DNA of 64,000 bases. Source: Nocardioides astragali (lineage in GTDB: Bacteria; Actinomycetota; Actinomycetes; Propionibacteriales; Nocardioidaceae). The notes beneath the pieces were generated by a model. The model was not told where the DNA came from, made no database searches, and saw only the letters and a list, made by a program, of their open reading frames with translations. Made by a program: the position numbers and the translations under genes. Shown here in pieces: positions 36,350 through 61,748 of the stretch. Numbering within the stretch: the first letter of the stretch is position 1; each line of letters opens with the position of its first letter. The stretch is from the NCBI RefSeq assembly GCF_024436375.1, contig NZ_JAFMZM010000001.1, positions 976,536-1,040,535 of the forward strand. Reading direction: 5' to 3'.

Positions 36350-36459
36350 GATGTGTCTGCCTTTCACAGAAGGGTCAGCGTGTGGCCTCCCGATCGGGCC
36401 GGTCGCTGTGACGGTGTTCACCGGAAAGGTAGGAGCCGGCTCAGTCGCTTTCGAACAGC

Positions 36460-36476: not shown

Positions 36477-36558
36477 ACTATTTGCGATGCACGTCACATC
36501 TGGTGTGATGACTCCACGGCGAACACTGGCGTTCGCCAACAACGGTGGGAGATCACGG

Positions 36559-39941: not shown

Positions 39942-39964
39942 CAAAGGTCAATGATGCGCCACAA
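39942..39964. promoter_or_regulatory. Regulon dyad, copy 1 (before the GntR gene)
   Basis: On the minus strand TTGTGGCG-CATCATT-GACCTTTG. The left arm matches the consensus ATGTGGCG well; the right arm is degenerate. It is the weakest of the five copies. Confidence 0.4.
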
Positions 39965-39968
39965 TGTA

Positions 39969-40274
39969 TCACTCGACTCGCTCGGCGACTCCGGCCTGCG
40001 TCGACGGGTCGGCTGTAGAGCCGACAGGTCCTTCGGTGATGCCGACACACTCTGGGCAGCGAGGCCCTCGTGCGGAGTGGAACGGGGTTTCCCAAGACTT
40101 GAACCATGTGCTCGCGTCCCGGCCGCACGCGGTGAAGAGGGTGCCCATCGTCTTGGCGTGGAGTACGGACAGTAGGCGACTCTCGTCGTCGAACCCGCCC
40201 GGGCCGCGCCTGAAGAATTGCGTCGTCGTGAACCACTCGGTCGGTCGAGGCACCTTTGAGGTCCGGCCGCTCAT
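39969..40274 (-). CDS. Hypothetical protein, last gene of the minus-strand beta-oxidation operon
   Basis: A 101-residue protein of no recognised family. Aromatic-rich segments (PTEWFTTTQFF; DASTWFKSWETPFHSARGP) and cysteines at CGRD and RCPECV hint at a small metal-binding or accessory protein. ATG 40274 overlaps the SDR stop codon (ATGA), so it is translationally coupled and probably part of the pathway rather than a chance frame. Confidence 0.5.
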   Translation of the reverse strand: MSGRTSKVPRPTEWFTTTQFFRRGPGGFDDESRLLSVLHAKTMGTLFTACGRDASTWFKSWETPFHSARGPRCPECVGITEGPVGSTADPSTQAGVAERVE

Positions 40275-41029
40275 CGCGGCGGCATCCGGATCGCACCGTC
40301 AAGCCGAATGGTCTCGCCGTTCAGCATGGGGTTGGAGATGATGTGGGCGGCAAGCGCGGCGAACTCCGATGGCTTCCCGAGCCGGCTCGGGTGTGGGATC
40401 TGAGCTCCGAGCGAGTCTTGAGCTGCCTGCGGAAGCCCCAGCAGCATGGGAGTCTCGAAGATCCCGGGCGCGATCGAGCATACCCGGATGTGGTGTTCGG
40501 CCAGGTCGCGCGCGGCGGTCAAGGTCAGGCCGTGCACGGCGGCTTTCGACGAGGAGTAAGCGGCTTGGCCGATCTGGCCGTCGAACGCAGCGATCGATGC
40601 GGTCATGATGACGACGCCGCGATCACCGTCGACGGGCTCGTTGGACGCCATGCGCTGCGCTGCGAGCCGCAACACGTTGAACGTGCCGATGAGGTTGACG
40701 TCGATGACGGCGCGGAATCTCTCCAGGTCGAGAACTCCGGACCGCCCGAGGATACGTCCGGGCGGAGCGATGCCAGCACAGTGGACCACGGCGTAGAGGG
40801 GAGTCTCGTTGGCCACGTCCAGCGCTTTGCTGACGTCGTCCTCGGTTGTGACGTCAGCTGGTGCGAAGTGAGCTCGTTCGCCCAGGCTCGCTGCGACTTC
40901 GGAGCCAGCCGAGGTGGGGAGGTCGACCAGGACGATCTCGCCGCCTAGGGCGTGCAACGCCTCTGCCGTTGACTTGCCGAGTCCTGATGCGGCGCCGGTC
41001 ACCATGACCCGCTTGCCTGCGATGTCCAT
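40271..41029 (-). CDS. SDR-family 3-hydroxyacyl-CoA dehydrogenase-like
   Basis: A 252-residue oxidoreductase. Cofactor site TGAASGLGKSTAEAL (residues 11-25), NAG-equivalent HCAGIAPPGR, and active-site Ser in IMTASIAAF with YSSSK as the Tyr-Lys pair. The opening MDIAGKRVMVTG resembles type II 3-hydroxyacyl-CoA dehydrogenase (17beta-HSD10 type). It would oxidise a hydroxyacyl-CoA with NAD+. It is in an operon with two acyl-CoA dehydrogenase genes and a crotonase gene. Confidence 0.85.
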   Translation of the reverse strand: MDIAGKRVMVTGAASGLGKSTAEALHALGGEIVLVDLPTSAGSEVAASLGERAHFAPADVTTEDDVSKALDVANETPLYAVVHCAGIAPPGRILGRSGVLDLERFRAVIDVNLIGTFNVLRLAAQRMASNEPVDGDRGVVIMTASIAAFDGQIGQAAYSSSKAAVHGLTLTAARDLAEHHIRVCSIAPGIFETPMLLGLPQAAQDSLGAQIPHPSRLGKPSEFAALAAHIISNPMLNGETIRLDGAIRMPPR

Positions 41030-41077
41030 CTTGTTCCTTTCGAGCGGCCGGTCTGAGCCGGAGCGGTTTGGTTGAGA

Positions 41078-41896
41078 TCAGAATTGGTGTTGCGCGCAGA
41101 GCGCTGCCCACAGGTCGGCCTGGCCGGGTGAATGCACAAGGTCGTAGACCCTCTGGCTCCACAGCTCAGGCCCACCTGCTTCGCGCGGAAGGGTCCACAG
41201 TTGAGTCGTGAAGTAGTGAAGGGGGTGCTCGGCGGTCATGCCGATTGCTCCGTGCACTTGATGGGCCGTGCGCGCGACTCGCGTACTGCTGCGGGCGGTC
41301 TGGATCTTCGCGCTGGCAATGGCCAGCGCGACAGACTCGGTGTTCGCTCGACTGCTCCCGGCTTGGGCCAAGGCATGCGAGACCGCCGCCTCACAGGCGC
41401 AAAGCTCCGACACGATGGACGCGATCTGGTGACGAACCACTTGGTGGCTGGCCAGGGGACGACCGAATTGGTGGCGAATGGCGACGTAGGAGGTGGCCTG
41501 GTCGACCGCGCCGCGAATGGCTCCCAGCGAATGCGCGGCGACACCAAGTGCGTGCCACAAGCGCACGGCCTGGCGGTGAGCAGGACTCAGGTCTTTGACC
41601 TGGTAGTCGTCCAGGGCGATCACGCCCTCGGGAATGGCGTGGTCGCGCAGTTCAGCCAGCTTGGCGACGGGGAAGAGTGTCTCGCGCAGGGGGCTGATTA
41701 GACCGGCCTGGGCGGTGCGGATGACGATGTCTCCGGCGTCGACCAGGTCACCGCCCACTCCGCCGAGGTGTTCAGGTATGCCAACCCGATCCAGCCCTGA
41801 CTCGGTGAGATGTCTCCAAGCCCGGCTGTCGAGACCGTCACCGGGGGCACAGGAGCGACCCAATATCTGGTCGAGCAGTTCGTCGAGGTCGCTCAT
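41078..41896 (-). CDS. Short acyl-CoA dehydrogenase subunit lacking the middle domain
   Basis: A 272-residue ACAD-family protein, against about 380 for a full enzyme. The N-terminal helices (LTESGLDRVGIPEHLGGVGG) pass through a brief linker (LDDYQVKDLSPAHRQAVRLW) straight into the C-terminal helical domain (YVAIRHQFGRPLASHQVVRH, TAHQVHGAIGMTAEHPLHYF). The central beta domain is essentially missing. Such reduced subunits pair with a full ACAD in heteromeric steroid/terpenoid-type enzymes. ATG 41896 overlaps the stop of the full-length partner (ATGA), which supports a complex. Confidence 0.8.
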   Translation of the reverse strand: MSDLDELLDQILGRSCAPGDGLDSRAWRHLTESGLDRVGIPEHLGGVGGDLVDAGDIVIRTAQAGLISPLRETLFPVAKLAELRDHAIPEGVIALDDYQVKDLSPAHRQAVRLWHALGVAAHSLGAIRGAVDQATSYVAIRHQFGRPLASHQVVRHQIASIVSELCACEAAVSHALAQAGSSRANTESVALAIASAKIQTARSSTRVARTAHQVHGAIGMTAEHPLHYFTTQLWTLPREAGGPELWSQRVYDLVHSPGQADLWAALCAQHQF

Positions 41897-43050
41897 CGGG
41901 TCGGCTCCCATCCCCGCGCGATGATGTCGCGCATGACTTCGGTCGCGCCGCCGCGCAGCGTGAAGGCTGGAGAGTGAGCCTGCGCCTCGCGGTAGAGGCG
42001 ACCCAGGTCCTCGTTGTGTTCGGCTTCGTCGAGCCAGACGGCTGCCAGATCCAAGGAGTCGAGCTCCCATGCCGTGCCGAGATCCTTCACGACCGCGGCC
42101 GCGACGCCCGGTGCGGCCGCATCGCCAAGGCGAGTGTTCACGCGGGCCGTCATTGCACGCAAGACGACCAGACGCGCGATGAGCTCGCCAGCGTTGGTGC
42201 GGAGGTAGTCCGAGCTCGCCCCGGAGGCGGAGAGCCCGGCGACGAGGGGGAACGTCGAGAGGAACCGCTCCGGCCCGCTGCGTTCGAACCCGAGCTCGCC
42301 GAGGACTTGTGCCCAACCCGAGCCCGGTCGTCCCAGCACTCGGGTGTCCGGGACGAAGATGTCGTCGAAGAATACTTCGCAGAAGTGCTCACGTCCGTCC
42401 AGCATCCTGATGGGCCGCACGGTGACGCCCGGCGAGGACATGTCGATGATGACCTGAGTGAGCGCTTCCTTATGCGCCTGGCCAGGTTGACCGGTTCGCA
42501 CCAGGGCCAACATGTGGTGGGCCCGGTCACCGTGGCTAGTCCAAGTCTTACTCCCGTTGACTCGCCATCCACCGTCCACCTGGATCGCACTCGTCCGGAC
42601 GGACCCGAGGTCTGATCCCGAGTCCGGCTCGCTCATCCCGATGCAGAAGTAGAGCTCTCCTCGAGCCATCGAGGGAAGAAACGCCTGGCGTTGCTCCTCG
42701 GTGCCATGCCGAAGCAGGCTCGGGCCAATCTGCCGGTCGGCGAACCAGTGCGCGGCGACCGGTGCACCTGCTACGAGTAACTCCTCGATGACAGCAAGGC
42801 GCTGTGACACGGACGCGTTACGACCGCCGTACGTTACCGGCCACGTCATTCCGATGAATCCCGCTGCGCCGAGGGCCCGAGTGAAGTCTGGGCTGTGGCA
42901 GGACAGCCAGGTGTCGACCTCGGGCCGGAACAATCCGCTTTCCGAGGCCCGGGCGAGGAAAGCGCGGATGCTACGGCGCTCAGCGAGGACGTCGTCTCCT
43001 TCGGCTGGGGGAGTCTCGCTGAACAGCGAGAGCTCGGCACGGGTGCTCAT
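41893..43050 (-). CDS. Acyl-CoA dehydrogenase (full-length partner)
   Basis: A 385-residue FAD enzyme introducing a 2,3-double bond into an acyl-CoA. FCIGMSEPDSGSDLGSVRTSA (flavin site), WRVNGSKTWTSHGDRAHHML, and the C-terminal LRGGATEVMRDIIARGW are typical. The usual catalytic Glu position is not obvious in the C-terminal half, as in several steroid-type FadE subunits. ATG 43050 overlaps the crotonase stop. Electrons would go to ETF, which is not encoded here. Confidence 0.88.
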   Translation of the reverse strand: MSTRAELSLFSETPPAEGDDVLAERRSIRAFLARASESGLFRPEVDTWLSCHSPDFTRALGAAGFIGMTWPVTYGGRNASVSQRLAVIEELLVAGAPVAAHWFADRQIGPSLLRHGTEEQRQAFLPSMARGELYFCIGMSEPDSGSDLGSVRTSAIQVDGGWRVNGSKTWTSHGDRAHHMLALVRTGQPGQAHKEALTQVIIDMSSPGVTVRPIRMLDGREHFCEVFFDDIFVPDTRVLGRPGSGWAQVLGELGFERSGPERFLSTFPLVAGLSASGASSDYLRTNAGELIARLVVLRAMTARVNTRLGDAAAPGVAAAVVKDLGTAWELDSLDLAAVWLDEAEHNEDLGRLYREAQAHSPAFTLRGGATEVMRDIIARGWEPTR

Positions 43051-43778
43051 CGTGCGGCCGCAATGCCGTGACGGTAGGCGTCGGTGTCGATGCTCGCCAA
43101 CTGGCGGGCAAGCTCGACCTCGGTCGCCTCGCTGTGGGTGGACAGCTCGGGCACGTCTCGCGTTGTTCTCTTGATCGAGGTCAGCAGCGAGCGCGGCACG
43201 TTCGCTACACGGCGGGCCATCGACGTGGCCGTGCCAAGCAGTTCCGCGTCGTCCACGCACTGCCATGCGAGTCCGACCCGCACCGCTTCTTCAGCGTCCA
43301 GCGGAGTGCCAAACATGACGGTCGCTGCTACCACCTGGGCGTCGGTGGCGCGGTGCAACATCCAGGTGTGCCCGCCGCCTGGGTGGATAGGGATGTGGAC
43401 GAAGCGCGAGTCGAACACGGCAGAGGCTCCTGCTATGCGCACATCGCAGGCGAGGGCGAGGTTCAGACCCGCCCCTACTGCGGGTCCGTTCACGGCCGCG
43501 ATCGTGGGCAGCGGAAAGTCCCGTACCAGCACAAACGCGTCGTAGATGGCACGCAGGCTTCTCTCGTCGGCTTCGCGTAGGACGCCACGGTCGGCGCCTG
43601 AGCAGAAGGTGTCTCCTCGGCCCGTCACCACCAGGGCACGTACGTCCGGCTCGTCGGCGACCGATGCCAGAACCCGCTTGAGATCGCTGACCATCTCGAG
43701 GGAGATGGCGTTGCGCCGGTCTGGGTCGTTCAGTTGGACGACCGCGACGGGCCCTTCTGAGCGTCGTATGACTTTCAA
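43047..43778 (-). CDS. Crotonase-family protein lacking both hydratase glutamates
   Basis: A 243-residue protein, first gene of the minus-strand operon. The TTG at 43778 is chosen as start because AAGGAG lies 7 bp before it. The fold is clear (VVQLNDPDRRNAISLEMVSD, VTGRGDTFCSGADRG), but the first glutamate position is Asn (GAGLNLALACDV) and the second is within VHIPIHPGGGHTW. A simple hydratase role is therefore unlikely; isomerase, hydrolase or C-C cleavage are open. It is preceded by dyad copy 2. Confidence 0.75.
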   Translation of the reverse strand: MKVIRRSEGPVAVVQLNDPDRRNAISLEMVSDLKRVLASVADEPDVRALVVTGRGDTFCSGADRGVLREADERSLRAIYDAFVLVRDFPLPTIAAVNGPAVGAGLNLALACDVRIAGASAVFDSRFVHIPIHPGGGHTWMLHRATDAQVVAATVMFGTPLDAEEAVRVGLAWQCVDDAELLGTATSMARRVANVPRSLLTSIKRTTRDVPELSTHSEATEVELARQLASIDTDAYRHGIAAAR

Positions 43779-43818
43779 CTCAACTCTCCTTCGCCTCCGT
43801 GCTTGCGTTATTAGTCGA

Positions 43819-43841
43819 ATGTGGCGCAACATTAGCCCAAT
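43819..43841. promoter_or_regulatory. Regulon dyad, copy 2 (between divergent beta-oxidation operons)
   Basis: ATGTGGCG-CAACATT-AGCCCAAT. The left arm matches the consensus exactly and the right arm differs at two bases. It sits about 40 bp from the crotonase start and 50 bp from the SDR start, so it can control both directions. Confidence 0.6.
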
Positions 43842-43842
43842 G

Positions 43843-43855
43843 GCACGTAACGTGC
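43843..43855. promoter_or_regulatory. Second palindrome in the same divergent promoter
   Basis: GCACGT-A-ACGTGC, a perfect 6-bp-arm palindrome one base away from dyad copy 2. It may be a site for a second regulator; a related ACGTGC-rich stretch precedes dyad copy 3. Confidence 0.4.
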
Positions 43856-43890
43856 ATCACAAGACGGTCAAGTGAGCAGAAGGAGTCCTC

Positions 43891-44793
43891 ATGACGGAGC
43901 GGGTCGCCCTGGTAACAGGGGCCGGTCGTGGCATCGGCCGCGCTATCGCCCTTTCCCTGGCGAAGTCCGGTTGGTCCATCGTGGTCAACGACCTCGGCGC
44001 GGCCCCAGATGGCCTCGGTGCCGACTCAGGACCAGCCGCAACTGTCGCTGCTGAGATCGAGGCCGCAGGCGGTCGCGCGATGGCAAGCACCGCCGACGTC
44101 AGCGACTGGGAGGCGACCCGCGAGATGGTGGCGGCCGCTACAGAGACCTTCGGTCGGTTGGACGGCGTCGTGAACTGCGCCGGAATCCTGCGCGACACCA
44201 TCTTCCACAAGATGTCTGAGTCCGAATGGGACGCCGTCGTGCAGGTCAACCTCAAGGGTGCCTTCTGTGTGAGCCGCGCAGCCGCCGAGGTCTTTCGCGA
44301 GCAGGGTGGCGGTGCGTACGTCCACATGGCCTCCACAGCTGGCCTCATCGGCAACTTGGCGCAGGCAAACTACTCTGCGGCCAAGCTTGGCATCGTCGCC
44401 CTCTCGCGGTCGATCGCCGTGGACATGGCGCGCTACAACGTGCGCTCCAACGCGATCGCACCCTTCGCATGGAGTCGCCTGATTGGCACCCTCCCGGAGG
44501 AGACCGAGGCCGAGAAGGCGAGGGTCGCCCGCATGAAGCGGATGACCCCCGAACAGATCGCGCCCTTGGTCGAGTTCCTCCTCAGCGACTCGGCCAGCGA
44601 CATCACCGGCCAGGTCTTTGTGGTACGCGGCAACGAGCTCATGCTGATGAGCCAGCCCCGTCCGGTGCGGACCATGGCACGGCTCGAGGGATGGACTGCC
44701 GACACGGTTGCGACGCACTTTGCCCCCGCGATCAGGTCGAGCCTGGTTCCGCTGGAGACCTCGCCGCAGCTCTTCTCCTACGACCCGGTCTGA
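43891..44793 (+). CDS. SDR-family dehydrogenase (MFE-2-type 3-hydroxyacyl-CoA dehydrogenase-like)
   Basis: A 300-residue oxidoreductase. TGAGRGIGRAIALSLAKSG (cofactor site), VNCAGILRDTIFHKMSESEW, catalytic Ser in VHMASTAGLIGNLAQ and YSAAK. The long VVNDLGAAPDGLGADSGPA insert and the C-terminal extension to 300 residues match the dehydrogenase domain of multifunctional enzyme type 2. The MaoC hydratase encoded 8 bp downstream completes the MFE-2-like pair as separate proteins. It is the first gene of the plus-strand operon. Confidence 0.87.
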   Translation: MTERVALVTGAGRGIGRAIALSLAKSGWSIVVNDLGAAPDGLGADSGPAATVAAEIEAAGGRAMASTADVSDWEATREMVAAATETFGRLDGVVNCAGILRDTIFHKMSESEWDAVVQVNLKGAFCVSRAAAEVFREQGGGAYVHMASTAGLIGNLAQANYSAAKLGIVALSRSIAVDMARYNVRSNAIAPFAWSRLIGTLPEETEAEKARVARMKRMTPEQIAPLVEFLLSDSASDITGQVFVVRGNELMLMSQPRPVRTMARLEGWTADTVATHFAPAIRSSLVPLETSPQLFSYDPV

Positions 44794-44800
44794 GGCACGC

Positions 44801-45667
44801 ATGACGATCAACGCAGAGAAGCTGCTTGCCTGGGAGTTCCCGGTAGTCGATCTCGCGTTCTCCCAGAAGGACGCGATGCTGTACGCCCTGGGAGTCGGAC
44901 TCGGCACAGACCCCACGGACGAGCGCGAACTGCCCTTCGTCTACGAGGAGCGTCTCGCCGTGCTGCCTTCCATGGCCGTGGTCCTTGGCCACCCTGGTCC
45001 GTGGTTCCGCGACCCTGCCACCGGCATCGACTGGATCCAGGTCCTCCACGGCGAGCAGACCTTGGCCGTGCACGGACCTCTCGTCCCCGATGTTCCGCTG
45101 AGGTGCACGACGCGCGTCGTCGACGTCGAGGACAAGGGCGAGGGTCGCGGTGCATTGGTGCGCTGGGCACGTGACATTCGGGATGTCTCCACCGGCAAGC
45201 TCGTGGCCACGCTCGAGAGCACCCTATTCTGTCGTAACGACGGTGGGTTCGGGGGCGAGCAGCGACCCAGGCCCGCGGTGGAGGAGTGGCCCTCCACGCA
45301 GCCGACCGATTCGTGCCTTCGAGTCATTTCGCCTAGGGCGGCACTCCTTTACCGCCTCAATGGGGACATGAACCCCGTACATGCTGATCCGAAGGTCGCA
45401 GCGGATGCCGGCTTCGAGAGACCGATCCTCCACGGACTGTGCACCTTCGCGGTGGCAATCTGGAGCATTCTGAGCACGCTCGCAGACGACGGCGTCAAGG
45501 TCGACGACCTCTCATCGGTCGCCGTACGGTTCAAGGCGCCGGTCCTGCCTGGGCAAGCCCTGCTAACAGACATGTGGCGAGAGGGCGACAGGGTTCGGTT
45601 CCGTAGCACCACCGGGGACGGCCGCGTCGTTCTAGACATGGGCGACCTTCGCCTTCAGGGCGGATGA
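44801..45667 (+). CDS. MaoC-family enoyl-CoA hydratase 2
   Basis: A 288-residue double hot-dog protein. The hydratase 2 signature YRLNGDMNPVHADPKVAADA (about residues 184-203) holds the catalytic Asp and His, followed by FERPILHGLCTFAVA. The N-terminal half is the usual degenerate copy. It hydrates trans-2-enoyl-CoA to (R)-3-hydroxyacyl-CoA, which the adjacent SDR could oxidise. Large substrates are typical of this two-domain form. Confidence 0.87.
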   Translation: MTINAEKLLAWEFPVVDLAFSQKDAMLYALGVGLGTDPTDERELPFVYEERLAVLPSMAVVLGHPGPWFRDPATGIDWIQVLHGEQTLAVHGPLVPDVPLRCTTRVVDVEDKGEGRGALVRWARDIRDVSTGKLVATLESTLFCRNDGGFGGEQRPRPAVEEWPSTQPTDSCLRVISPRAALLYRLNGDMNPVHADPKVAADAGFERPILHGLCTFAVAIWSILSTLADDGVKVDDLSSVAVRFKAPVLPGQALLTDMWREGDRVRFRSTTGDGRVVLDMGDLRLQGG

Positions 45668-45674
45668 TCGCGGT

Positions 45675-46475
45675 ATGAGCGACCACTCCCACCCCGAGAT
45701 CAGGTACGAGCTGAGCGAGGCCGGCGTTGCAGTTATCACGTTGACCCGGCCGGAAGCGCTCAACGCCCTCACCACGGAGATGGCCACGCGACGACTACCC
45801 GCGCTCTGCGCCGAGGTCACCGAGGACGACCGCGTCAAGGTCGTCGTCCTCACCGGGGAGGGCCGGGCCTTCTGCTCGGGCGCCGACGTGAACGAGCGCA
45901 TCCCGATGGTGGTCAGTGGCTCCAGTGCCGCAACCAAGGAGAGATTGGTAGGTGCATTCATCCTCCCGGTCTGGCGAATCCCCAAGCCGGTCGTCGCGGC
46001 CGTCAACGGAGTAGCCGCCGGTGGCGGCATGTCGTTGGCTTGCGCTGCCGATTTCCGCATCGTGGCGCAGGAAGCAAGCTTCGTCGCCGCGTTCGTCCGT
46101 CGTGGGCTGATGCCTGACAGCGGCATCACCTTCCTGCTCCCACGGCTGGTGTCGCAGTCAGTCGCGACCCGGCTCCTGATGACCGGAGGGAGTCTCACCG
46201 CCGCCGAGGCGCAGGCTGTTGGCTTGGCCGACGAGGTCGTTCCCGCGCACGAGCTACTCGAGCGCGCGACCGACTTTGCAGAGCAGCTCGCAGCCGGTCC
46301 GGCTGTGGCGCTCAGCTTCACAAAACGTGCCCTGCAGTGCGCCAGCGGACGTGCGCTCGCCGACCAGCTTGCGTTCGAGAGCTGGGGTCAAACCGTCTGC
46401 TTCAAGACCGACGACTTCGCCGAGGGGATGGCGGCATTCCATGACAAGCGCTCCCCGGTTTTCCAAGGCCGATGA
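45675..46475 (+). CDS. Crotonase-family isomerase/hydratase (PaaG-like)
   Basis: A 266-residue crotonase. TLTRPEALNALTTEMATRRL, LTGEGRAFCSGADVN and GVAAGGGMSLACAADFRIVA are present. The first hydratase glutamate is Ser, and the second region reads RRGLMPDSGITFLLPRLV, with an acidic residue in the place used by enoyl-CoA isomerases of the PaaG type. Double-bond isomerisation is therefore more likely than hydration. It follows the MaoC gene by 7 bp and overlaps the next gene region. Confidence 0.8.
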   Translation: MSDHSHPEIRYELSEAGVAVITLTRPEALNALTTEMATRRLPALCAEVTEDDRVKVVVLTGEGRAFCSGADVNERIPMVVSGSSAATKERLVGAFILPVWRIPKPVVAAVNGVAAGGGMSLACAADFRIVAQEASFVAAFVRRGLMPDSGITFLLPRLVSQSVATRLLMTGGSLTAAEAQAVGLADEVVPAHELLERATDFAEQLAAGPAVALSFTKRALQCASGRALADQLAFESWGQTVCFKTDDFAEGMAAFHDKRSPVFQGR

Positions 46476-46486
46476 AAGGACAGCAA

Positions 46487-48495: not shown

Positions 48496-48621
48496 CCTGA
48501 CGCTGTACCGCGAGACGGCCCGAGCGGCGACTGCCGTCGCCATCGACCGATCCCGCTGCGAAACCCGGCTGGGAACCGACACGGTCCCGTCGTATCCGAA
48601 CCGAGAGGAAACTCATCAATC

Positions 48622-49590: not shown

Positions 49591-49705
49591 GCGGCACGGT
49601 CCGGCCGCCGAGTCCCGCCCGGCGGCCGGGCCGGCCACCCTGTCGAGACATGGCCACGAGCCAGACCGTCCCCGAACACCAGTACCAACGAGGAGCAAAG
49701 ATCCC

Positions 49706-51977: not shown

Positions 51978-52007
51978 TGGTTGACGTGACGTGCGTTACA
52001 TGTTTGC

Positions 52008-52030
52008 ATGTGGCGAATAAGGCGCCTAAT
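52008..52030. promoter_or_regulatory. Regulon dyad, copy 3 (before the ABC-transporter operon)
   Basis: ATGTGGCG-AATAAGG-CGCCTAAT, equal to the consensus. It lies 46 bp before the first ATPase start. A TTGACG stands upstream at 51981-51986, a possible -35 box. Confidence 0.65.
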
Positions 52031-52075
52031 GAACCACATGCGAGGTAGTTCGACGTGAAGCAGGGAGTGCAACTC

Positions 52076-54137: not shown

Positions 54138-55737
54138 CAAGAGGCTGCGCCGCCGAGGCGCGGGCCGGCGCGGCACGCATCACGCGGTCCTCGCTGCCTC
54201 GTGCGCCGTCGCCCTCTTGATGGCCGGAACTGCCTGTTCGACCGGGGGCGAGGAGACCGGAGGGAGCGGCAGCGGCGGCGGCGGTGACAACACGCTGGTC
54301 ATTGGTAGCGCCATCGAGCCCGGCAGCCTGCACATCCTGCGTGACGGCGATGACGGCAACGAGCTCATCAACTGGAGCATCACCCAGCCTCTTGTGGAGC
54401 GGACATCCGACGGCTTCGAGCCGGTCCTGGCCGTAGAGCTGCCTGTGCAGGACGAGACGGACCCGAAGCGCTGGCACGTGAAGCTCCGCGAAGGCGTCAC
54501 CTTCACCAACGGCGAGGCCTTCAACGCAGACTCCGTTAAGGAGAACGTCGACCTCGTGGCTGATCCTGACTTCGCCTCGACCATCAACGGTGTCGAGGTC
54601 TTTGCGACCGCCGAGGTGATCGACGAGTACTCGGTCGACCTCATCACCAAGGAGCCCGACCCCTACCTGCTCTACCGGCTCTCGACCCTTCGGTTCATCC
54701 CGCCCAAGGCCTCTGCCGACGCCGACGCGTATGCCGAGAAGCCGATCGGTACCGGGCCATACGAGTTTGTTAAGTGGGACAAGGGTCAGCGCATCGTCTT
54801 GAAGAAGAATGAGGACTACTGGGGAGGAGATGACGCCCAGCTCGACGAAGTCGAGTTCCGTTTCATTCCTGAAGCCGGAGCGCGGCTCGCAGCCCTCGAT
54901 GCTGGCGAGATCGACATGGCGACGTCGATCACCCCCGAGGACGCCACCCGCGTACCGCAGGTCATTGAATCCGACGGTTACGCCAAGACCTCTCTCATCC
55001 GGATTAACCTCGACATGCCGCCTTATGACGACCCGTCGTTCCGGCTGGCGCTCGCGCACGCCATCAACCTGGACTCGATCAACGAGAACCTCATGAACGG
55101 CCAGTTCGTCCCTGCCCAGTGCCAGGTCGTCCCGCCGGGCGAGTTCGGCTCCGACGACTCGCTGGAGACCTACGCGTACGACCCGGACGAGGCGAAGAGG
55201 CTCCTCTCGGAGGTGGACCTCCCGGCCGACTTCTCGGTCAAGATGGTCTCGACGACCGGAATCCAACTCAAGGATCGCGAGATCGGGCAGGCGATCGCGG
55301 CCGACTGGGAAGCGATCGGGCTCGATGTCGATGTCGACTTCCTGGCTTCGGACCCATGGCTCGACGACGTGCTGGCCGGCGGCCCCAAGACGTCGGCGAA
55401 GGGCCCCGGCCCCCTCACCTACATCGACTTCGACCACCACAGCAACTACGCCCAGCGCTACACCAGCCGAGTCCTCGATCGAACCAACCCGCTCGCCACC
55501 ATCGGCAGCGCATATCCCGAGATCGACTCCACGCTGAAGACGGCGCTCACGTCAGAGGACGAGGCCGAGGCCGAGGGAGCCTTCCAAGAGCTCAACCAAC
55601 TGTCGTGCGACGACGCACTTGTGCTCCCCCTTCTTTACATGCCGGACCAGTGGGGTGCCGCCACCGCGGTCGAGTACACGCCGGGGCCTGGTCTCGTGAA
55701 CCGGATTCACCTCGAGGATGTTCGTGTCAACTCGTAA
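54118..55737 (+). CDS. Solute-binding lipoprotein, family 5 (peptide/nickel/opine type)
   Basis: A 539-residue protein. A basic N-terminus and hydrophobic segment (LAASCAVALLMAG) end in lipobox GTACS, then a Gly/Ser linker. The SBP_bac_5 fold is evident from WHVKLREGVTFTNGEAFNAD, GTGPYEFVKWDKGQRIVLKK and LALAHAINLDSINENLMNGQ. Family 5 proteins bind peptides but also sugars, heme, opines and conjugates, so the ligand here may be the catabolic substrate or a conjugate of it. It overlaps the upstream ATPase gene by 20 bp. Confidence 0.9.
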   Translation: MTMNSPDKRLRRRGAGRRGTHHAVLAASCAVALLMAGTACSTGGEETGGSGSGGGGDNTLVIGSAIEPGSLHILRDGDDGNELINWSITQPLVERTSDGFEPVLAVELPVQDETDPKRWHVKLREGVTFTNGEAFNADSVKENVDLVADPDFASTINGVEVFATAEVIDEYSVDLITKEPDPYLLYRLSTLRFIPPKASADADAYAEKPIGTGPYEFVKWDKGQRIVLKKNEDYWGGDDAQLDEVEFRFIPEAGARLAALDAGEIDMATSITPEDATRVPQVIESDGYAKTSLIRINLDMPPYDDPSFRLALAHAINLDSINENLMNGQFVPAQCQVVPPGEFGSDDSLETYAYDPDEAKRLLSEVDLPADFSVKMVSTTGIQLKDREIGQAIAADWEAIGLDVDVDFLASDPWLDDVLAGGPKTSAKGPGPLTYIDFDHHSNYAQRYTSRVLDRTNPLATIGSAYPEIDSTLKTALTSEDEAEAEGAFQELNQLSCDDALVLPLLYMPDQWGAATAVEYTPGPGLVNRIHLEDVRVNS

Positions 55738-56764
55738 CGAGACCATCTTGAATGCGGAGTCGGGGCCGACGCAGTCGGCCCCGACTCCGGGGGCACGCCG
55801 CTCGGCGGCGGCGGCCCGCGCCTCCGGGTGGGTTGACCTGTCGACTGTCCGCTGGGCCCTTGGTCGGATCGTCTTCGGATTCGCCGCGGTGATCATCGTG
55901 ATGTCGGCGGTCTTCTTCGTGACCCGCTCGACGTCGGACCCGGCGCGGAAGATGCTGCCACTCGGTTCGTCACAAGAGCAGATCGACGCTCTGAACGCAC
56001 GGCTCGGGCTCGACGACCCGTTGTGGATGCAGTACGAGCACTTCCTCTCCGACATGTTCCACCTGGACTTCGGGCGGTCGATCTGGGAGGGGCGTCCCGC
56101 GCTCGAGGTCGTCGTCGACCGTCTCCCGGTGACCTTCACGCTGGTCGGCTTGGCGTTGCTCATCAGCATCGTCGTCTTCGTGCCCCTCGGCGTGATCGCA
56201 AGCCTGCGGCCCGGCAGTCTCACCGACAGGCTCGTGACCGCGCTGTCGCTCGCCGGGCTGTCCGCCCCGCAGTTCTGGCTCGGCGCGATGCTCGTGCTGG
56301 TGTTCGCAGTCGAGCTGGACTGGTTTCCGACCTCTGGATCAGGGTCGATGATCTACGCCGTCCTTCCCGCCGTCACGCTCGCGTTCACGATGGGTGGGCG
56401 CCTCGCGCAGGTCACCCGGACATCCTTCCTCGACCAGGCTGGTTCGCCATACGTCACGATGGCGCGAGCCAAGGGGCTGTCCACGTTTTACATCCTGCGC
56501 AGGCACGTGCTTCGCAACGCGCTCCTCCCGATCCTGACGATCGCCTCGTGGGACACAGCGCGTGCCATCACCGGTCACGCCGTGGTCGTCGAGGTTGTGT
56601 TCGCGTGGCCTGGCTTCGGACGGCTGGTCATCGAGTCTGTACAGCGTCAAGACTTCCCCGTCATCCAAGCCTGTGTGTTCATCGGAGCCGTTCTGATCGT
56701 CGTGATCAACGTCGTCACGGACGTGCTCAACCGCATTATCGAGCCGCGAATGGAGTCGCGATGA
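55718..56764 (+). CDS. Peptide-type ABC transporter permease (OppB/DppB family)
   Basis: A 348-residue membrane protein. It has an extended 40-residue cytoplasmic N-terminus, then six helices. FFVTRSTSDPARKMLPLGSS and the cytoplasmic EAA loop YVTMARAKGLSTFYILRRHV are family hallmarks. The ATG lies within the last 20 bp of the binding-protein gene. Confidence 0.9.
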   Translation: MFVSTRNETILNAESGPTQSAPTPGARRSAAAARASGWVDLSTVRWALGRIVFGFAAVIIVMSAVFFVTRSTSDPARKMLPLGSSQEQIDALNARLGLDDPLWMQYEHFLSDMFHLDFGRSIWEGRPALEVVVDRLPVTFTLVGLALLISIVVFVPLGVIASLRPGSLTDRLVTALSLAGLSAPQFWLGAMLVLVFAVELDWFPTSGSGSMIYAVLPAVTLAFTMGGRLAQVTRTSFLDQAGSPYVTMARAKGLSTFYILRRHVLRNALLPILTIASWDTARAITGHAVVVEVVFAWPGFGRLVIESVQRQDFPVIQACVFIGAVLIVVINVVTDVLNRIIEPRMESR

Positions 56765-57684
56765 CCGATCAAGCAAACGCGCCTGCGCCTACGCGTCCGG
56801 CCTCGTGGCGCCGCATCATGGAGCGTGTGTGGCACGACAAGGTAGTGCTGCTGGCGATGCTCTACGTCGCTCTCATGGTGTGTGCGGCTGTCGCCTCGCT
56901 GTTCCTGCCCCTCGACAGCGCGCGGACTCCCGCCATCGAGCAGAGGCTTGTGGCTCCCTCCCTCGAGCACCCGCTCGGCACTGACGGGCTAGGCCGCGAC
57001 GTGCTTGCCCGCACGCTCGTGGGTTCGCGCATCTCCTTGCTCGTGGGCGTGTCAGTGGTGCTGTTCGCCGGCGTGTTCGGAACAGCCATGGGGGTCCTCG
57101 CCGGCTACTTCGGCGGCTTCTGGGACACCGTCGTGATGCGCGTCGTCGACATCCAGTTGGCATTCCCCAACCTCCTGCTCATGGTTGCGGTCATCTACTT
57201 CTTCGGCGCGAACGTGGGGGTCCTCATCGCGGCGCTGTCGGTGGTCAGCTGGATGGTGTTCGCGCGCGTCGTACGCACGACTGTCATGTCCGTCAGGTCA
57301 AGCTTGTACGTCCGCGCGGCACATTTCGCTGGCTGCTCGCGTCTGAGCATCGTTCGACGTCACTTGCTACCGGCTGTTGCGCCGATCCTCCTGACCCAGG
57401 CCATGCTCGAGTTCGCGGCGATCATCCTGGCCGAGTCGTCGCTGTCCTTCCTTGGGCTCGGAGTACAGCCTCCCGACGCGTCGTGGGGCCTCATGATCGC
57501 GGAAAACAGGCCATACCTCGAGGTTGCCTGGTGGACGGTGTTCTTCCCCGGTCTCGCGATCGTCATGACCGTGCTGGCCGCCAACCTGATCGGTAGCGCT
57601 TTCCGCGTCTGGCTCGACCCCCGCCAGGACGACGGCCCGCGCGCTCGTGCAGACGCCGCCGCCCAGAACGAAGCGCCCTACTGA
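56761..57684 (+). CDS. Peptide-type ABC transporter permease (OppC/DppC family)
   Basis: A 307-residue membrane protein. HPLGTDGLGRDVLARTLVGS is the OppC signature after the first helix. LYVRAAHFAGCSRLSIVRRH is the EAA loop, and GLGVQPPDASWGLMIAE closes the core. ATGA overlap with the previous gene. Confidence 0.9.
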   Translation: MTDQANAPAPTRPASWRRIMERVWHDKVVLLAMLYVALMVCAAVASLFLPLDSARTPAIEQRLVAPSLEHPLGTDGLGRDVLARTLVGSRISLLVGVSVVLFAGVFGTAMGVLAGYFGGFWDTVVMRVVDIQLAFPNLLLMVAVIYFFGANVGVLIAALSVVSWMVFARVVRTTVMSVRSSLYVRAAHFAGCSRLSIVRRHLLPAVAPILLTQAMLEFAAIILAESSLSFLGLGVQPPDASWGLMIAENRPYLEVAWWTVFFPGLAIVMTVLAANLIGSAFRVWLDPRQDDGPRARADAAAQNEAPY

Positions 57685-57728
57685 GGGCTGAACGCACGCT
57701 GACACCTCGACGCCATGAAGGACAACCC

Positions 57729-58736
57729 ATGCGGACCGCGCCCAACAGCCCAGCCGTCCCATCGCGCAGCGATGTGGTCGTGTCCGAGGTCAGACTTCCC
57801 GTGGGCACGCACGATGGCGAGACGCACGTAGCGGCGACCGTCTATGCGCCAGCTGATCTGGCGGGACCGGCAACGGTCGTTTGCGCTTTTCCCGGTGGCG
57901 GCTACGGGCGCCGCTACTACGAGATCGACCACGTCGACGTTCACGGCCCGGGTCAGGCGTCGTGGCACGCTGCTCGAGGGATCGTGTTCGTCGCCTTCGA
58001 CCCGTACGGCGACGGGGACGGGACGCACCTGCCCGAGGAGTCCCGCGGGCTCCGGGAAACCTGCGCCGCGATGCACCAAGCGACTACGTCGATCAAGTCA
58101 ATGCTCGAGGGCGGAACCTTATGGCCGCAGTCGGCGCCGGTCACGGTCGATCGGCTCGTGGGCGTCGGTCACTCGTTAGGTGGCATGCAGCTGGTGGCCC
58201 AGCAGGCCTGGCACTCGACCTTTGACGCGGTCGCGGTGCTCGGCTGGAGTTGTGTGCAGACAGTGGTGCCTACAGCCGACGGCAAGGACTTCCTCTCGCC
58301 TCACCATGACCCGAGCGCGGCTGCTCTCGATGCGGCGTGGGCGGGGCCGCTCGTGGATGAGCGATCGCACCTGCGATTTGCCTACTACTGGGATGACGTC
58401 TCGCCGGGGTTGGTCGAGGAGGAGATGGGGGTCGGTTTTCCGGTCCGGACCGCCGATCCCCTCCCCGCGTGGATCACGCCCCGGTTTCCACCATTTGCGG
58501 CGGTATGCCTAGAGCCAGGGATTGTCGGGGAGGAAGCGGCGAGCATCACCGTGCCCGTCTTCATCAGCGCTGGTGAACGAGACGTCCTGAAAGACCTCGG
58601 GCAGGAGGTGCCCGCCTACAGCGCCTCCCGCGACATCACGATGTTCAAAGTGCCGCGCTGCGCTCACATGCACAATCTTTCTCCCCAACGGGAGTTGCTG
58701 TGGGACCGCCTGCACCGCTGGGTGGTCTCGCTCTAG
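57729..58736 (+). CDS. Alpha/beta hydrolase (dienelactone-hydrolase/acyl-esterase type)
   Basis: A 335-residue protein. VVCAFPGGGYGRRYYE is the oxyanion-hole strand, DRLVGVGHSLGGMQLVAQQA holds the nucleophile Ser, VFISAGERDVLKDLG the acid, and KVPRCAHMHNLS the likely catalytic His. It follows the transporter genes by 44 bp in the same direction, so it may release the imported substrate from an ester or conjugate. Confidence 0.8.
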   Translation: MRTAPNSPAVPSRSDVVVSEVRLPVGTHDGETHVAATVYAPADLAGPATVVCAFPGGGYGRRYYEIDHVDVHGPGQASWHAARGIVFVAFDPYGDGDGTHLPEESRGLRETCAAMHQATTSIKSMLEGGTLWPQSAPVTVDRLVGVGHSLGGMQLVAQQAWHSTFDAVAVLGWSCVQTVVPTADGKDFLSPHHDPSAAALDAAWAGPLVDERSHLRFAYYWDDVSPGLVEEEMGVGFPVRTADPLPAWITPRFPPFAAVCLEPGIVGEEAASITVPVFISAGERDVLKDLGQEVPAYSASRDITMFKVPRCAHMHNLSPQRELLWDRLHRWVVSL

Positions 58737-58771
58737 CCCGAGAAAGGTCTCGGCCCGACACGATCTGCCTA

Positions 58772-58794
58772 TATAGGCGCCTCATTCGCCTATA
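58772..58794. promoter_or_regulatory. Regulon dyad, copy 4 (before the thiolase gene)
   Basis: TATAGGCG-CCTCATT-CGCCTATA, a perfect 8-bp-arm dyad. The right arm overlaps TATACT (58791-58796), an excellent -10 box, so bound protein would block RNA polymerase. The thiolase start is 30 bp further on. Confidence 0.7.
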
Positions 58795-58823
58795 CTGTCC
58801 CCGTCATCTTTTCAGGAGGAAAT

Positions 58824-60011
58824 ATGAGCCGCAAGGTCATCGTCGCGGGTGTCGGAATGATCCCGTTCAGCAAGCCCGGGCAGAGTCCGACATACGTTGA
58901 CATGGGCGCTGAGGCACTCCGCGCGGCGCTCTCGGATGCTGGTGTGGACTACTCCGCTGTCCAGATCGCATACGCGGGCTACGTCTACGGTGACTCGACG
59001 TCGGGTCAGTCCGCCATCTACGAGGTGGGGCAGAGTGGAATCCCGATCTTCAACGTCAACAACAACTGCTCATCGGGGTCCTCGGCTCTCTATCTTGCCC
59101 GCATGGCGATCGAGACAGGTCAGGCCGACGTGGCGCTTGCCCTCGGTTTCGAGCAGATGCAGGCGGGCGCACTGAAGTCTTTCTGGGACGATCGGCCCGT
59201 CACCCGGTCTAGATACAGGCACGTGTTGGAAGACCTGACGGTGGATGTCGCTGACCTTCCCCAGGCGATCAGGACATTCGGTGGCGCGGGCCGCGAGCAC
59301 ATGGAGAAGTACGGGACTAGCCTCGAGGCCTTCGCGGCGATCCGAGCCAAAGCAAGCCGGCACGCGTCGAACAACCCGTTCGCGGTGTTCCGCAAGGTGG
59401 TCACGACCGAGGATGTCCTCAATGACAAGGTGCTCTGGCCTGGAGTGATGACGCGTCTGATGGCGTGTCCGCCGACGTGCGGGGCCGCCGCGGCGATCCT
59501 GGTCTCGGAGGAGTACGCCGCCCGACACGGTCTACGCACCGACGTACGCATCGTCGAGCAGGTTCTGACTACCGACGAAGCGATCTCCTTCGACCCGCCT
59601 TCGATGATCAGCTACGCCGGTGCCCACATGACCGCGGCGGCAGCCAGCGCACTCTACGAAGCGTCCGGCTACGGACCGGAGGACATCAAGGTGGCCGAGT
59701 TGCACGACTGCTTTGCCCACAACGAGCTGATCTCCTACGAAGGGCTCGGGTTCTGTCCGGAGGGGGGAGGCGAGAAGTTCGTCATGGATGGTGACAACAC
59801 CTATGGCGGCCAGGTCGTCACCAACCCCTCGGGCGGCCTGTTGTCCAAGGGCCACCCGCTCGGTGCCACGGGACTGGCTCAGTGCTTCGAGTTGACTCAG
59901 CAGCTGCGCGGGACGGCTGGCGCTCGGCAGGTGGACGACGTCGACCTCGCCTTGCAGCACAACATCGGCCTCGGCGGCGCTTGTGTCGTGACGCTGTATG
60001 GACGCAACTGA
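58824..60011 (+). CDS. SCP-x-type acetyl-CoA acyltransferase (thiolase)
   Basis: A 395-residue thiolase. The nucleophilic Cys is in NNNCSSGSSALYLARMAIET (about residue 76). HDCFAHNELISYEGLGF has the catalytic His of the SCP-x class, and GGLLSKGHPLGATGLAQ is the conserved C-terminal loop. GGLGGACVV provides the last segment. It would cleave the beta-ketoacyl-CoA formed by the SDR enzymes. AGGAGG lies 6 bp before the ATG. Steroid and branched-chain degraders commonly use this class. Confidence 0.9.
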   Translation: MSRKVIVAGVGMIPFSKPGQSPTYVDMGAEALRAALSDAGVDYSAVQIAYAGYVYGDSTSGQSAIYEVGQSGIPIFNVNNNCSSGSSALYLARMAIETGQADVALALGFEQMQAGALKSFWDDRPVTRSRYRHVLEDLTVDVADLPQAIRTFGGAGREHMEKYGTSLEAFAAIRAKASRHASNNPFAVFRKVVTTEDVLNDKVLWPGVMTRLMACPPTCGAAAAILVSEEYAARHGLRTDVRIVEQVLTTDEAISFDPPSMISYAGAHMTAAAASALYEASGYGPEDIKVAELHDCFAHNELISYEGLGFCPEGGGEKFVMDGDNTYGGQVVTNPSGGLLSKGHPLGATGLAQCFELTQQLRGTAGARQVDDVDLALQHNIGLGGACVVTLYGRN

Positions 60012-60077
60012 TAGGTGGTCACGCGTCGCGATGGCGACTGACGGAACTGCTTGGAGCTCGGGTTCCGGACCACTTGA

Positions 60078-61547
60078 TCAAGGGATGAGCCCCGGCGCTG
60101 CGAGTGAGGAGGGAAGCGGCATGACGGTGCCTTCCTGACGGCTGGGGCCGGGCCCGCCTCCCTTGTTGTCAAGGCAGAGAAGCAGTCCTGTGACGACCCA
60201 CACGCCGCCGAGCGCGGCGGCGGTAAGGACGAGGGCGTGCCCCTCGCCGCCGAGCAGGACGAACAAGGTGATGCCCAGCGCGCTTCCCGCGGACGAGCCG
60301 ACGCAGCGCAGGACCTGGCTGAAGGCGAGCATGTTCGCCGTGCCCTCCTGTGGAACGTGCGGGATAATCAGGAGCGGGACGCAGGCAAGCGTGAATCCGC
60401 CTCCGATGCCGCCAATCGCCATGCAAACGGCAATCGCGAGCAGATCGCTGTGCCACATGGCTAGTCCGAACGCTTGTAGCGCGAAGACGCCGCAACCCAC
60501 CGGCAGGACCCAGTGCATACCGATGCGCCTGCCCGTAGCCAACGCGACTCGGCTCCCGATGACACTCGTGATGGAGTACGGGAGCTGGAGGAATCCGGCC
60601 AGCGCGATCGATTCACCCAGTCCCCAATCCGGGTCCTGGGTGACCAAGGTCGCCAGCGAGACCATTGCGAAGACGCCCAACGCGGCAAGGAAGGCCACGG
60701 CGTGAGGCTCAAGTAGGCCCCGCTGCCATGCGAGGCGTAGGTCCACAAGATTGCCGCGTCCGGACCATGACCGCCATGTCCACGTGGCTATGGCGACGAC
60801 CCCAGTGCCGAGAAGGCCGAGCGTTGGCCATGATGACCATCCCCACCTGGGCGCGCTAGTGAATCCAACGAGGCACGTAGCGACTCCGGTGCCCATCAGG
60901 GTGACCCCGAGGAGGTCGAGCGCTCCGTTCCGACGACGGCGAGAGCCAGGGAACCACGTGATGGTTACGAGCAGCAGAAGGCCGTTGACGACGCTCGCCA
61001 CGAGAAAAGTGCTTCTGAGACCCCAACCGGCCGCCATCAGGGAGGCAGCGGGATGCGCGATGCCAGCTCCAGCCACCGTGGCGACAGAGAGCACGGAGAT
61101 GAGCGATTCTTGTCGCCGTCCCTCAAAGTGCTCTCGCGCCGCGGCAATCGCGAGCGGGGTAAGCGCGAGCCCGAAGCCTTGGAGGCAACGACCCGCTAGA
61201 AATGGTCCGAACTCGTGACTGAACGTCGTCAGCACACTACCTATGGTGATGACGAAGAGGCCTGCCAGAACGGCAGGCTTCCGGGCGCGACCTCCTCCGA
61301 ATGCACCGAAGATGGGCATGGCCACAGCTCCTACCAGCAGCGGGCCCGTCAGGTTCCACTGAGCACCGGCGTAGGAGACGTCGAACTCCCGCGCGACCGC
61401 AGGAACCAATGGGGCGCCGAGGCTGGCAACCATTGCTGTGGAGCCGGCAACAAGGATGAGGGCAGTTTTTGCGGCGAAGCCTGAAGGCGTCTCATCGCGT
61501 TCAGACGCCGAGCTTCGCCCCGCTCGAACCCGCCGTCTTAGTTTCAC
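60078..61547 (-). CDS. MFS transporter (DHA2-type, about 14 helices)
   Basis: A 489-residue membrane protein with a GTG start. ALILVAGSTAMVASLGAPLVPAV opens the first helix, GGGRARKPAVLAGLF is the loop 2-3 motif, and AGRCLQGFGLALTPLA follows. Length and helix count suggest the 14-helix DHA2 drug:H+ antiporter group, which includes exporters and some substrate importers. The dyad at 61641-61663 in front of it ties it to the catabolic regulon, either as a second uptake route or to expel toxic intermediates. Confidence 0.85.
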   Translation of the reverse strand: MKLRRRVRAGRSSASERDETPSGFAAKTALILVAGSTAMVASLGAPLVPAVAREFDVSYAGAQWNLTGPLLVGAVAMPIFGAFGGGRARKPAVLAGLFVITIGSVLTTFSHEFGPFLAGRCLQGFGLALTPLAIAAAREHFEGRRQESLISVLSVATVAGAGIAHPAASLMAAGWGLRSTFLVASVVNGLLLLVTITWFPGSRRRRNGALDLLGVTLMGTGVATCLVGFTSAPRWGWSSWPTLGLLGTGVVAIATWTWRSWSGRGNLVDLRLAWQRGLLEPHAVAFLAALGVFAMVSLATLVTQDPDWGLGESIALAGFLQLPYSITSVIGSRVALATGRRIGMHWVLPVGCGVFALQAFGLAMWHSDLLAIAVCMAIGGIGGGFTLACVPLLIIPHVPQEGTANMLAFSQVLRCVGSSAGSALGITLFVLLGGEGHALVLTAAALGGVWVVTGLLLCLDNKGGGPGPSRQEGTVMPLPSSLAAPGLIP

Positions 61548-61640
61548 GTCAGGCCATTGATGACGGAACCAGTCGCCCCGGCATCAGTCGGTGCTCGCCT
61601 CCAAGTCGACAAGAGAATCAAAGGCATCGGCACGGTACAA

Positions 61641-61663
61641 ATGTGGCATATTATGCGCCTAAT
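61641..61663. promoter_or_regulatory. Regulon dyad, copy 5 (before the MFS gene)
   Basis: ATGTGGCA-TATTATG-CGCCTAAT, one base from consensus in the arms. On the minus strand the spacer gives CATAATA, a possible -10 region for the MFS gene, whose start is 94 bp away. Confidence 0.6.
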
Positions 61664-61748
61664 GGCAACATAGAGCGTCGAGGCCGAATGTCTGTGTGGA
61701 CGATCGGAGTAGACGCCTAGGGGTTCAGATCGGGTTCGGCGCAGGCGC

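What the first reader, a model, noticed from the sequence alone, without database searches (positions are those of the whole stretch)
39942..61663. Five copies of one 23-bp dyad mark every promoter of a 22-kb catabolic region
Copies at 39942, 43819, 52008, 58772 and 61641 share the layout 8-bp arm, 7-bp spacer, 8-bp arm, with consensus ATGTGGCG-N7-CGCCTAAT. Copy 4 is a perfect dyad overlapping a TATACT -10 box. Each copy precedes a different transcription unit: the GntR gene, divergent beta-oxidation operons, transporter operon, thiolase and MFS gene. None was noticed elsewhere in the window. The layout defines a single-regulator regulon, most simply controlled by the FadR-type GntR protein at 39102-39893. 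The motif differs from KstR, KstR2 and PaaR operators known to me.
Basis: partly seen in the sequence, partly recalled or inferred. Interest (0 to 1): 0.8.

Follow-up and report, generated by a model that had tools for sequence, protein, structure and literature searches.

The report
Four-box switch controlling a catabolic cluster
A 22-kb bacterial gene cluster, probably for breaking down an unidentified ring-shaped acid, carries the same unusual multi-part DNA site in front of each of its gene groups; such sites recur around the same regulator gene in two other bacteria, so that regulator likely switches the whole cluster.

Summary
All five sites exist. Their best common unit is a 14-bp core dyad (ATNNKGCGCMNNAT) with a weaker half-box 9 bp further out on one or both sides: up to four boxes in 32 bp. 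Orthologous clusters lie in two other genomes (gntR 74% and 68% identical). A matrix trained on the window alone put its top 4 places of a 309-kb contig and its top 3 of a 76-kb contig at promoters of those clusters. The gntR sites are the weakest and rest on position and alignment. Short consensus patterns are not specific genome-wide; the 32-bp array is. GntR is the only regulator gene found in all three clusters. Its sensor is an FCD domain with conserved histidines, not E. coli FadR's acyl-CoA domain, so a metal-bound carboxylate is a likelier ligand. The operator does not follow the published FadR-subfamily consensus. Binding, repression and cooperative assembly are inferred. Verdict: a real, locally conserved, probably horizontally acquired regulon with a non-canonical GntR operator.

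The parts
39942..39973 (-). O1, operator of gntR; core dyad 39951-39964, outer boxes weak
   Evidence: weakest of the five; aligns with the gntR-promoter sites of G814 and G1075
43810..43841 (.). O2, four-box operator shared by the divergent ech and SDR operons; core dyad 43819-43832
   Evidence: orthologous site in G814 (241866) and G1075 (24321)
52008..52039 (+). O3, four-box operator of the ABC-transporter operon; core dyad 52017-52030
58763..58794 (+). O4, four-box operator of the thiolase gene; core dyad 58772-58785; overlaps TATACT at 58791-58796
61641..61672 (-). O5, operator of the MFS gene; core dyad 61650-61663; one outer box clear, one weak
39102..39893 (-). gntR: GntR HTH plus FCD sensor, the predicted regulator
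   Evidence: Pfam PF00392 and PF07729 above cut-off; orthologs in both other clusters
40271..43779 (-). unit: enoyl-CoA hydratase, two acyl-CoA dehydrogenases, SDR (start of the first gene presumed at about 43779)
43891..51977 (+). unit: SDR, MaoC-type hydratase, crotonase, MenB/BadI-like crotonase, type III CoA-transferase, orphan AttH-fold protein, CapA/MslH-like protein, alpha/beta hydrolase
52055..58736 (+). unit: Opp/Nik-type ABC transporter (two ATPases, SBP_bac_5, two permeases) and a protein of unknown family
58824..60011 (+). thiolase / lipid-transfer-type gene
   Evidence: NF006102, 644.5 bits against cut-off 436
60078..61547 (-). MFS transporter gene

Best explanation
The five sites are operators of one local regulon, likely bound by the FCD-type GntR protein encoded at 39102-39893, which is predicted to repress the whole catabolic cluster and its own gene until a pathway acid releases it. 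Each operator is built on two core half-boxes (ATNNKGCGC) that face each other and share a central GCGC, with a weaker half-box 9 bp outside on one or both sides, so that the full form is a palindromic four-box array; at gntR the array is incomplete. Shown: the sites, this anatomy, confinement of the strong arrays to the locus, and recurrence at orthologous promoters around orthologous gntR genes in two other genomes. Inferred: that GntR binds them; that two or more dimers sit side by side on the boxes; that binding covers the promoter and represses; that the ligand is a metal-coordinated carboxylate of the pathway; that the pathway breaks down an alicyclic or terpenoid-like acid through CoA thioesters, the MenB/BadI-like crotonase opening a ring.
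For: Matrix trained only on the window: its top 4 distinct places on G814's 308,680-base contig all lie in the orthologous cluster; its top 3 on G1075's 76,302-base contig are the ABC, divergent ech/SDR and gntR promoters. Symmetric column permutations put all top places in the cluster in 0 of 300 and 1 of 300 trials. Reverse test: a matrix from five G814 sites ranks O3, O2, O4, O5 as its four best distinct places on the 1.04-Mb home contig. Outer boxes tested on places ranked by the core alone: in G814's top 20, 9 of 10 outer boxes of the 5 promoter sites exceed the 95th background percentile against 0 of 30 elsewhere; in G1075's top 20, 4 of 4 at two promoter sites against 1 of 34 at 17 other places, the gntR site appearing in an overlapping frame with 1 of 2. 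Whole genomes: a 32-bp pattern has 6 places at up to 2 mismatches in 3 genomes, all in the clusters. gntR is the only regulator gene found in all three clusters. The transporter differs in type (Opp/Nik against NMT1) but keeps the operator.
Against: No binding data. The gntR sites are weak: O1 is only 23rd in the reverse test, and G814's gntR site (10.2-10.8) does not stand out from unrelated places such as one at 15.3. The core departs from the FadR-subfamily consensus. The 32-bp pattern was made from the sites, finds only 6 of the 14, has one place outside the clusters at 3 mismatches, and its reversed control also has matches at up to 3 mismatches (0+1, 2+2 and 1+1 on the two strands of the three genomes). 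Looser patterns are noise: the 23-bp pattern at 2 mismatches has 252 matches in the home genome against 327 for the control, and that has 17 places against 39. The offset test also shows raised scores at +9 and +12, which overlap the palindrome itself. The thiolase and MFS proteins under O4 and O5 have only distant relatives (27-31%) in the other clusters. Substrate and ligand are unknown.
Confidence: 0.75

Rival explanations
1. A regulator encoded elsewhere (for example of TetR, LacI or IclR type) binds the sites, and gntR is only one of its targets.
For: The core is not the FadR-subfamily consensus (PMC4494728, section 10); a 14-bp palindrome with a central CG would also suit other families (recalled). 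The gntR sites are the weakest.
Against: No second regulator was found among the annotated genes of the cluster, and every ORF of 170 aa or more listed in G1075's cluster (19228-37199) matches a window or G814 gene. The IclR gene at 36487-37413 was in the query set and has no match in the G814 or G1075 stretches. The sites go with gntR across three genomes with different neighbours.
Confidence: 0.1
2. GntR is the regulator but acts as an activator at some or all of the operators.
For: An FCD regulator that induces with citrate is known (CitO, PMC4746285; search listing and start of abstract). O5 lies 93 bp from the presumed MFS start. The promoter scan of 43000-62000 found one sigma-70-like site, on the + strand over O5, where 1.8 are expected by chance, so promoter positions are not settled.
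Against: O2-O4 lie 15-49 bp from presumed starts and O4 overlaps a TATACT box, a repressor-like position.
Confidence: 0.12
3. One GntR dimer binds one simple dyad; the other boxes are without function.
For: FCD regulators can bind short single palindromes (Atu1419, 10 bp; PMC7797058, passages). The gntR and MFS sites work, if they work, without a full array.
Against: Outer boxes are conserved at a fixed 9-bp step in genomes not used for training and are what separates promoter sites from chance cores.
Confidence: 0.2

Closest known systems
E. coli NanR on its (GGTATA)3 operator
   Same: FCD-type GntR protein, the best profile match in the PDB (6on4); several closely spaced boxes, bound by three cooperating dimers in NanR (PMC8012715, passages).
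   Different: NanR boxes are direct repeats of another sequence; here boxes are tandem on each strand but mirrored about a shared GCGC. NanR family model 90.3 bits against cut-off 260. Cooperativity here is untested.
FadR-subfamily operators (TKGT-N2/3-ACMA) with additional half-boxes
   Same: Palindromic core; weaker adjacent boxes 7-12 nt from the centre are described for the family (PMC4494728, section 17); here the outer box centre is 11.5 bp from the array centre.
   Different: Core is KGC-GCM with no spacer, not TKGT-N2/3-ACMA (PMC4494728, section 10).
Atu1419 (VanR-type FCD repressor of hydroxycinnamate catabolism)
   Same: FCD regulator of a catabolic cluster with operators over -10 boxes and at its own promoter region (PMC7797058, passages).
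   Different: Single 10-bp palindromes ATGTATACAT; tetramer with looping between distant sites.
KstR, KstR2, PaaR
   Same: Local palindromic operators in front of CoA-dependent catabolic genes (recalled).
   Different: KstR and KstR2 are TetR-type (PMC3068626, search listing); motifs recalled, not compared here; no TetR gene was found in this cluster.

Membership tests
FadR subfamily of GntR regulators (protein) | GntR winged HTH followed by an all-helical FCD domain | tested here: met
   PF00392 54.3 bits (cut-off 27) and PF07729 59.4 bits (cut-off 24.3); AlphaFold model mean pLDDT 89.9, Foldseek matches to NanR, CGL2915 and others
FCD sensors with a metal site | conserved histidines (with an acidic residue) at the metal-site positions | tested here: met
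   H161, H205 and H227 invariant and E157 at least 90% in 22 sequences; in 42 sequences H161 and H205 invariant, H227 at least 90%, E157 not listed. Metal binding itself not testable here
FadR subfamily operator | TKGT-N2/3-ACMA | tested here: not met
   core KGC-GCM without spacer at 14 aligned sites; consensus from PMC4494728 section 10
Acyl-CoA-responsive FadR | FadR equivalog score above cut-off and an acyl-CoA-binding C-terminal domain | tested here: not met
   TIGR02812 21.4 bits against cut-off 249.2; Pfam reports FCD as the C-terminal domain
NanR | NCBIfam NanR model above cut-off; (GGTATA)n direct repeats | tested here: not met
   90.3 bits against 260; box sequence differs
NanR-like mode of action | cooperative assembly of several dimers on adjacent boxes | not testable with these tools
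   suggested by box spacing only
Single-regulator local regulon | strong sites confined to the locus | tested here: met
   for the 32-bp array; short patterns are not confined
Single-regulator local regulon | sites conserved beside orthologous regulator genes | tested here: met
   two further genomes, G814 and G1075
Single-regulator local regulon | regulator binds the sites | not testable with these tools
   needs gel shift or footprint
BadI (2-ketocyclohexanecarboxyl-CoA hydrolase) | NCBIfam equivalog score above cut-off | tested here: not met
   46472-47278: badI 229.8 against 467.6, menB 212.5 against 342.7; ring opening is an analogy only

The most novel reading that the evidence does not exclude
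An FCD-type GntR ortholog group, spread sporadically across actinobacteria with its catabolic cluster, reads a mirror-image four-box array (two 9-bp tandem boxes per strand sharing a GCGC centre) as a cooperative multi-dimer switch: a symmetric counterpart of NanR's direct-repeat operator, and a GntR operator code outside the published FadR-subfamily consensus.
Probability: 0.5. Interest if true: 0.62.

Novelty: new variant of a known kind. Interest (0 to 1): 0.52.

Why it matters
It ties a small, apparently mobile catabolic cluster that includes an orphan AttH-fold protein family to one predicted regulator and a readable operator code, so the regulon can be recognised in other genomes and its inducer (hence the unknown substrate) can be sought with a simple reporter. 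It also adds an operator layout that motif surveys built on TKGT-N-ACMA would miss.

Tried and rejected
Rejected: a plain 8-7-8 dyad as the unit. An acyl-CoA-binding FadR domain. NanR or BadI equivalence (scores below cut-off). The nearby IclR gene as regulator (no match to it in the G814 and G1075 stretches). Short consensus patterns as a genome-wide test: hits did not exceed controls.

Led nowhere: a genome-contig scan with the window protein found no relative; with a 22-protein alignment it gave 80 loci, none above 48% identity. Of those 80 and of the loci, 13 were scanned for the array: no place reached 20; the best was 17.7 in L043, 8 kb from its gntR. More distant gntR relatives (10 loci) sit near other beta-oxidation genes without the whole cluster. 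Plasmids hold gntR relatives under 60% identity only (885 records). No GntR at E <= 1e-60 in 80 genomes of the genus of G562 (L083's title says Amycolatopsis), although an Amycolatopsis protein at 76% exists in the protein search (P0004); the tool warns that such an empty answer shows nothing. Pfam and PDB sequence searches with the orphan protein 48622-49590 and with 57729-58736 were empty.

Papers: no paper describing this regulon or operator appeared in searches (0 papers), 101 and 102 of the held library. I saw search listings only, except PMC4494728 (passages, sections 10 and 17) and PMC7797058, PMC8012715, PMC7674646 (passages).

Full report
WHAT IS THERE. The window is the end of contig C8 (bases 976536-1040535) of a 5.17-Mb genome. 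Between a sugar-transporter and IclR gene region on the left and a biotin carboxylase gene on the right sits a catabolic cluster, 39102-61672. I count 21 genes in six transcription units inferred from strand and spacing: gntR; ech, two acyl-CoA dehydrogenases and an SDR; SDR, MaoC-type hydratase, two crotonases (one MenB/BadI-like), type III CoA-transferase, an orphan protein, a CapA/MslH-like protein and an alpha/beta hydrolase; an Opp/Nik-type ABC transporter (five genes) and a protein of unknown family; a thiolase; an MFS transporter.

THE SITES. The five 23-mers are real and stand out in the window. The same matrix also found second copies shifted by 9 bp, which led to the re-reading. The element common to all five is a 14-bp dyad whose ten half-boxes read [AT][TA]NN[GT]GCGC. 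Nine bp outside it lies a weaker half-box on one or both sides, giving 32-bp frames at 39942 (O1), 43810 (O2), 52008 (O3), 58763 (O4) and 61641 (O5). Seven of the ten outer boxes match 4 or more of 7 consensus positions; both at O1 and one at O5 do not.

TESTS AGAINST CHANCE. On the whole home contig (1,040,535 bases) the five best distinct places of the 32-bp matrix are the five sites (26.1-40.3); the next unrelated place scores 17.6. That matrix was trained on the sites, so other genomes matter more. Close gntR relatives are rare. Besides the window's own, the family sample (198 genomes) had nothing above 43% identity and the class sample (394) nothing at E <= 1e-40. At E <= 1e-60 there was one in 401 genomes of the family of G558, one in 396 of its genus, one in 28 of the genus of G814, G814 itself, and none in 80 of the genus of G562. 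The first look scored a capped number of candidates per genome. The two found are G814 (74% identical) and G1075 (68%).

Both carry ech and two dehydrogenases divergent from MaoC, the MenB/BadI-like crotonase, the CoA-transferase, the orphan protein (86% and 84%) and gntR, plus the CapA-like protein (64-65%). The SDR next to the operator is clear in G814 (76%) and not listed separately in G1075; the crotonase 45675-46475 has a 65% match in G1075 only. The thiolase and MFS have only distant relatives there (27-31%). The window-trained matrix put its top 4 distinct places of G814's 308,680-base contig inside that cluster (29.1, 27.5, 27.3, 22.1); then come 257115 (15.7) and an unrelated place (15.3), and the gntR site only at 10.2-10.8. 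In G1075's 76,302-base contig the top 3 are the ABC, divergent ech/SDR and gntR promoters (27.6, 26.9, 17.8), the next unrelated place 12.5. Symmetric column permutations put all top places in the cluster in 0 of 300 (G814) and 1 of 300 (G1075) trials. The reverse test, a matrix from five G814 sites on the home contig, returned O3, O2, O4 and O5 as its four best distinct places, but O1 only 23rd.

ANATOMY ACROSS 14 SITES (five here, six G814, three G1075). Core half-boxes (28): T at position 2 in 27, G or T at 5 in 28, G at 6 in 26, C at 7 in 25, G at 8 in 25, C at 9 in 26. Outer half-boxes (28): G at 5 in 23, A at 9 in 20. The gntR sites of G814 and G1075 have one clear outer box and lack the other; at O1 both are weak. 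The offset test has its second peak at -9 in both the own and the foreign sites; +9 and +12 are raised too, overlapping the palindrome itself. To avoid choosing sites by their outer boxes I ranked places by the 14-bp core alone. In G814's top 20, the 5 promoter sites had 9 of 10 outer boxes above the 95th background percentile; the other 15 places (one inside the cluster) had 0 of 30. In G1075 the core is less selective: unrelated places come first, 32705 appears in an overlapping frame (1 of 2), the divergent site is 20th. There two promoter sites have 4 of 4 outer boxes above the threshold and the 17 other places 1 of 34. The sixth G814 site (257115) is not among the top 20 and is the least certain.

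Whole genomes: a 32-bp pattern drawn from these sites has 6 places at up to 2 mismatches in the three genomes, all in the clusters, and one at 3 mismatches outside (G1075:C18:42348). The reversed control also has a few matches at up to 3 mismatches (0+1, 2+2, 1+1 on the two strands), so the location rather than the number of hits is the evidence; the pattern finds 6 of the 14 sites. Shorter patterns do not beat their controls.

WHO BINDS. gntR is the only regulator gene found in all three clusters, and its own promoter carries a site each time. G814's transporter is of NMT1 type while the window's is of Opp/Nik type, and G1075's transporter genes match G814's; all have an operator. The protein has a GntR HTH and an FCD domain. 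H161, H205, H227 and E157 are conserved in 22 close relatives; in a wider set of 42, H161 and H205 stay invariant and H227 at least 90%. Such residues hold a metal in FCD sensors (PMC7674646, passages), and E. coli FadR lacks them according to the same paper. Hence a carboxylate ligand is likelier than an acyl-CoA. The best profile match in the PDB is NanR, which binds its repeats as three cooperating dimers (PMC8012715, passages). The published FadR-subfamily consensus is TKGT-N2/3-ACMA, and extra boxes 7-12 nt from the centre occur in the family (PMC4494728, sections 10 and 17). The core here does not fit the former; the outer boxes fit the latter.

HOW IT PROBABLY WORKS (inferred). GntR dimers assemble side by side over the array, 15-93 bp from the presumed starts and at O4 over a TATACT box, and block transcription until a pathway acid releases them. 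The weaker, incomplete operator at gntR would let the regulator be made while the rest is shut. The enzymes suggest CoA-dependent breakdown of a ring-containing acid; G814 adds two P450s, SDRs and an isochorismatase-like protein downstream. The substrate is not identified, and the MenB/BadI-like protein is not a BadI by model score.

ORIGIN. The cluster's G+C is 65.1% against 70.5% for the contig outside the window; the left 39 kb of the window is also low (66.5%). The orphan protein occurs at E <= 1e-60 in 1 of 215 genomes of the genus, its own. This suggests horizontal acquisition.

VERDICT. A real local regulon with a non-canonical GntR operator: a new variant of a known kind.

Noticed in passing
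window 48622-49590 (+): Orphan protein family: no Pfam or NCBIfam match, 54 relatives found, 84-86% conserved in all three clusters; AlphaFold model (pLDDT 93.7) has the fold of AttH, kievitone hydratase, fungal [4+2] pericyclases and 25-phosphosteroid lyase, so perhaps a hydratase, lyase or isomerase of the pathway.
   Followed up: partly
window 49706-51043 (+): CapA-like protein whose NCBIfam match is the lasso-peptide Trp epimerase MslH (288 bits, cut-off 700) and whose only PDB relatives are that group (8gq9); conserved in a catabolic cluster in three genomes, role unknown.
   Followed up: partly
window 57729-58736 (+): Protein without Pfam, NCBIfam or PDB match; a 48% relative lies 10 kb beyond the G814 cluster at C1:270398-271402.
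   Followed up: no
window 36420-36486: Just before the IclR gene at 36487 the sequence repeats TTTGC and GCAAA, possibly that regulator's own operator.
   Followed up: no
window 4001-61700: G+C is 62-68% here against 70.5% for the contig outside the window, so the low-G+C stretch is wider than the cluster and may be an island.
   Followed up: no
G1075:C18:42348-42379: One 32-bp array match with 3 mismatches outside the clusters; neighbourhood not examined.
   Followed up: no
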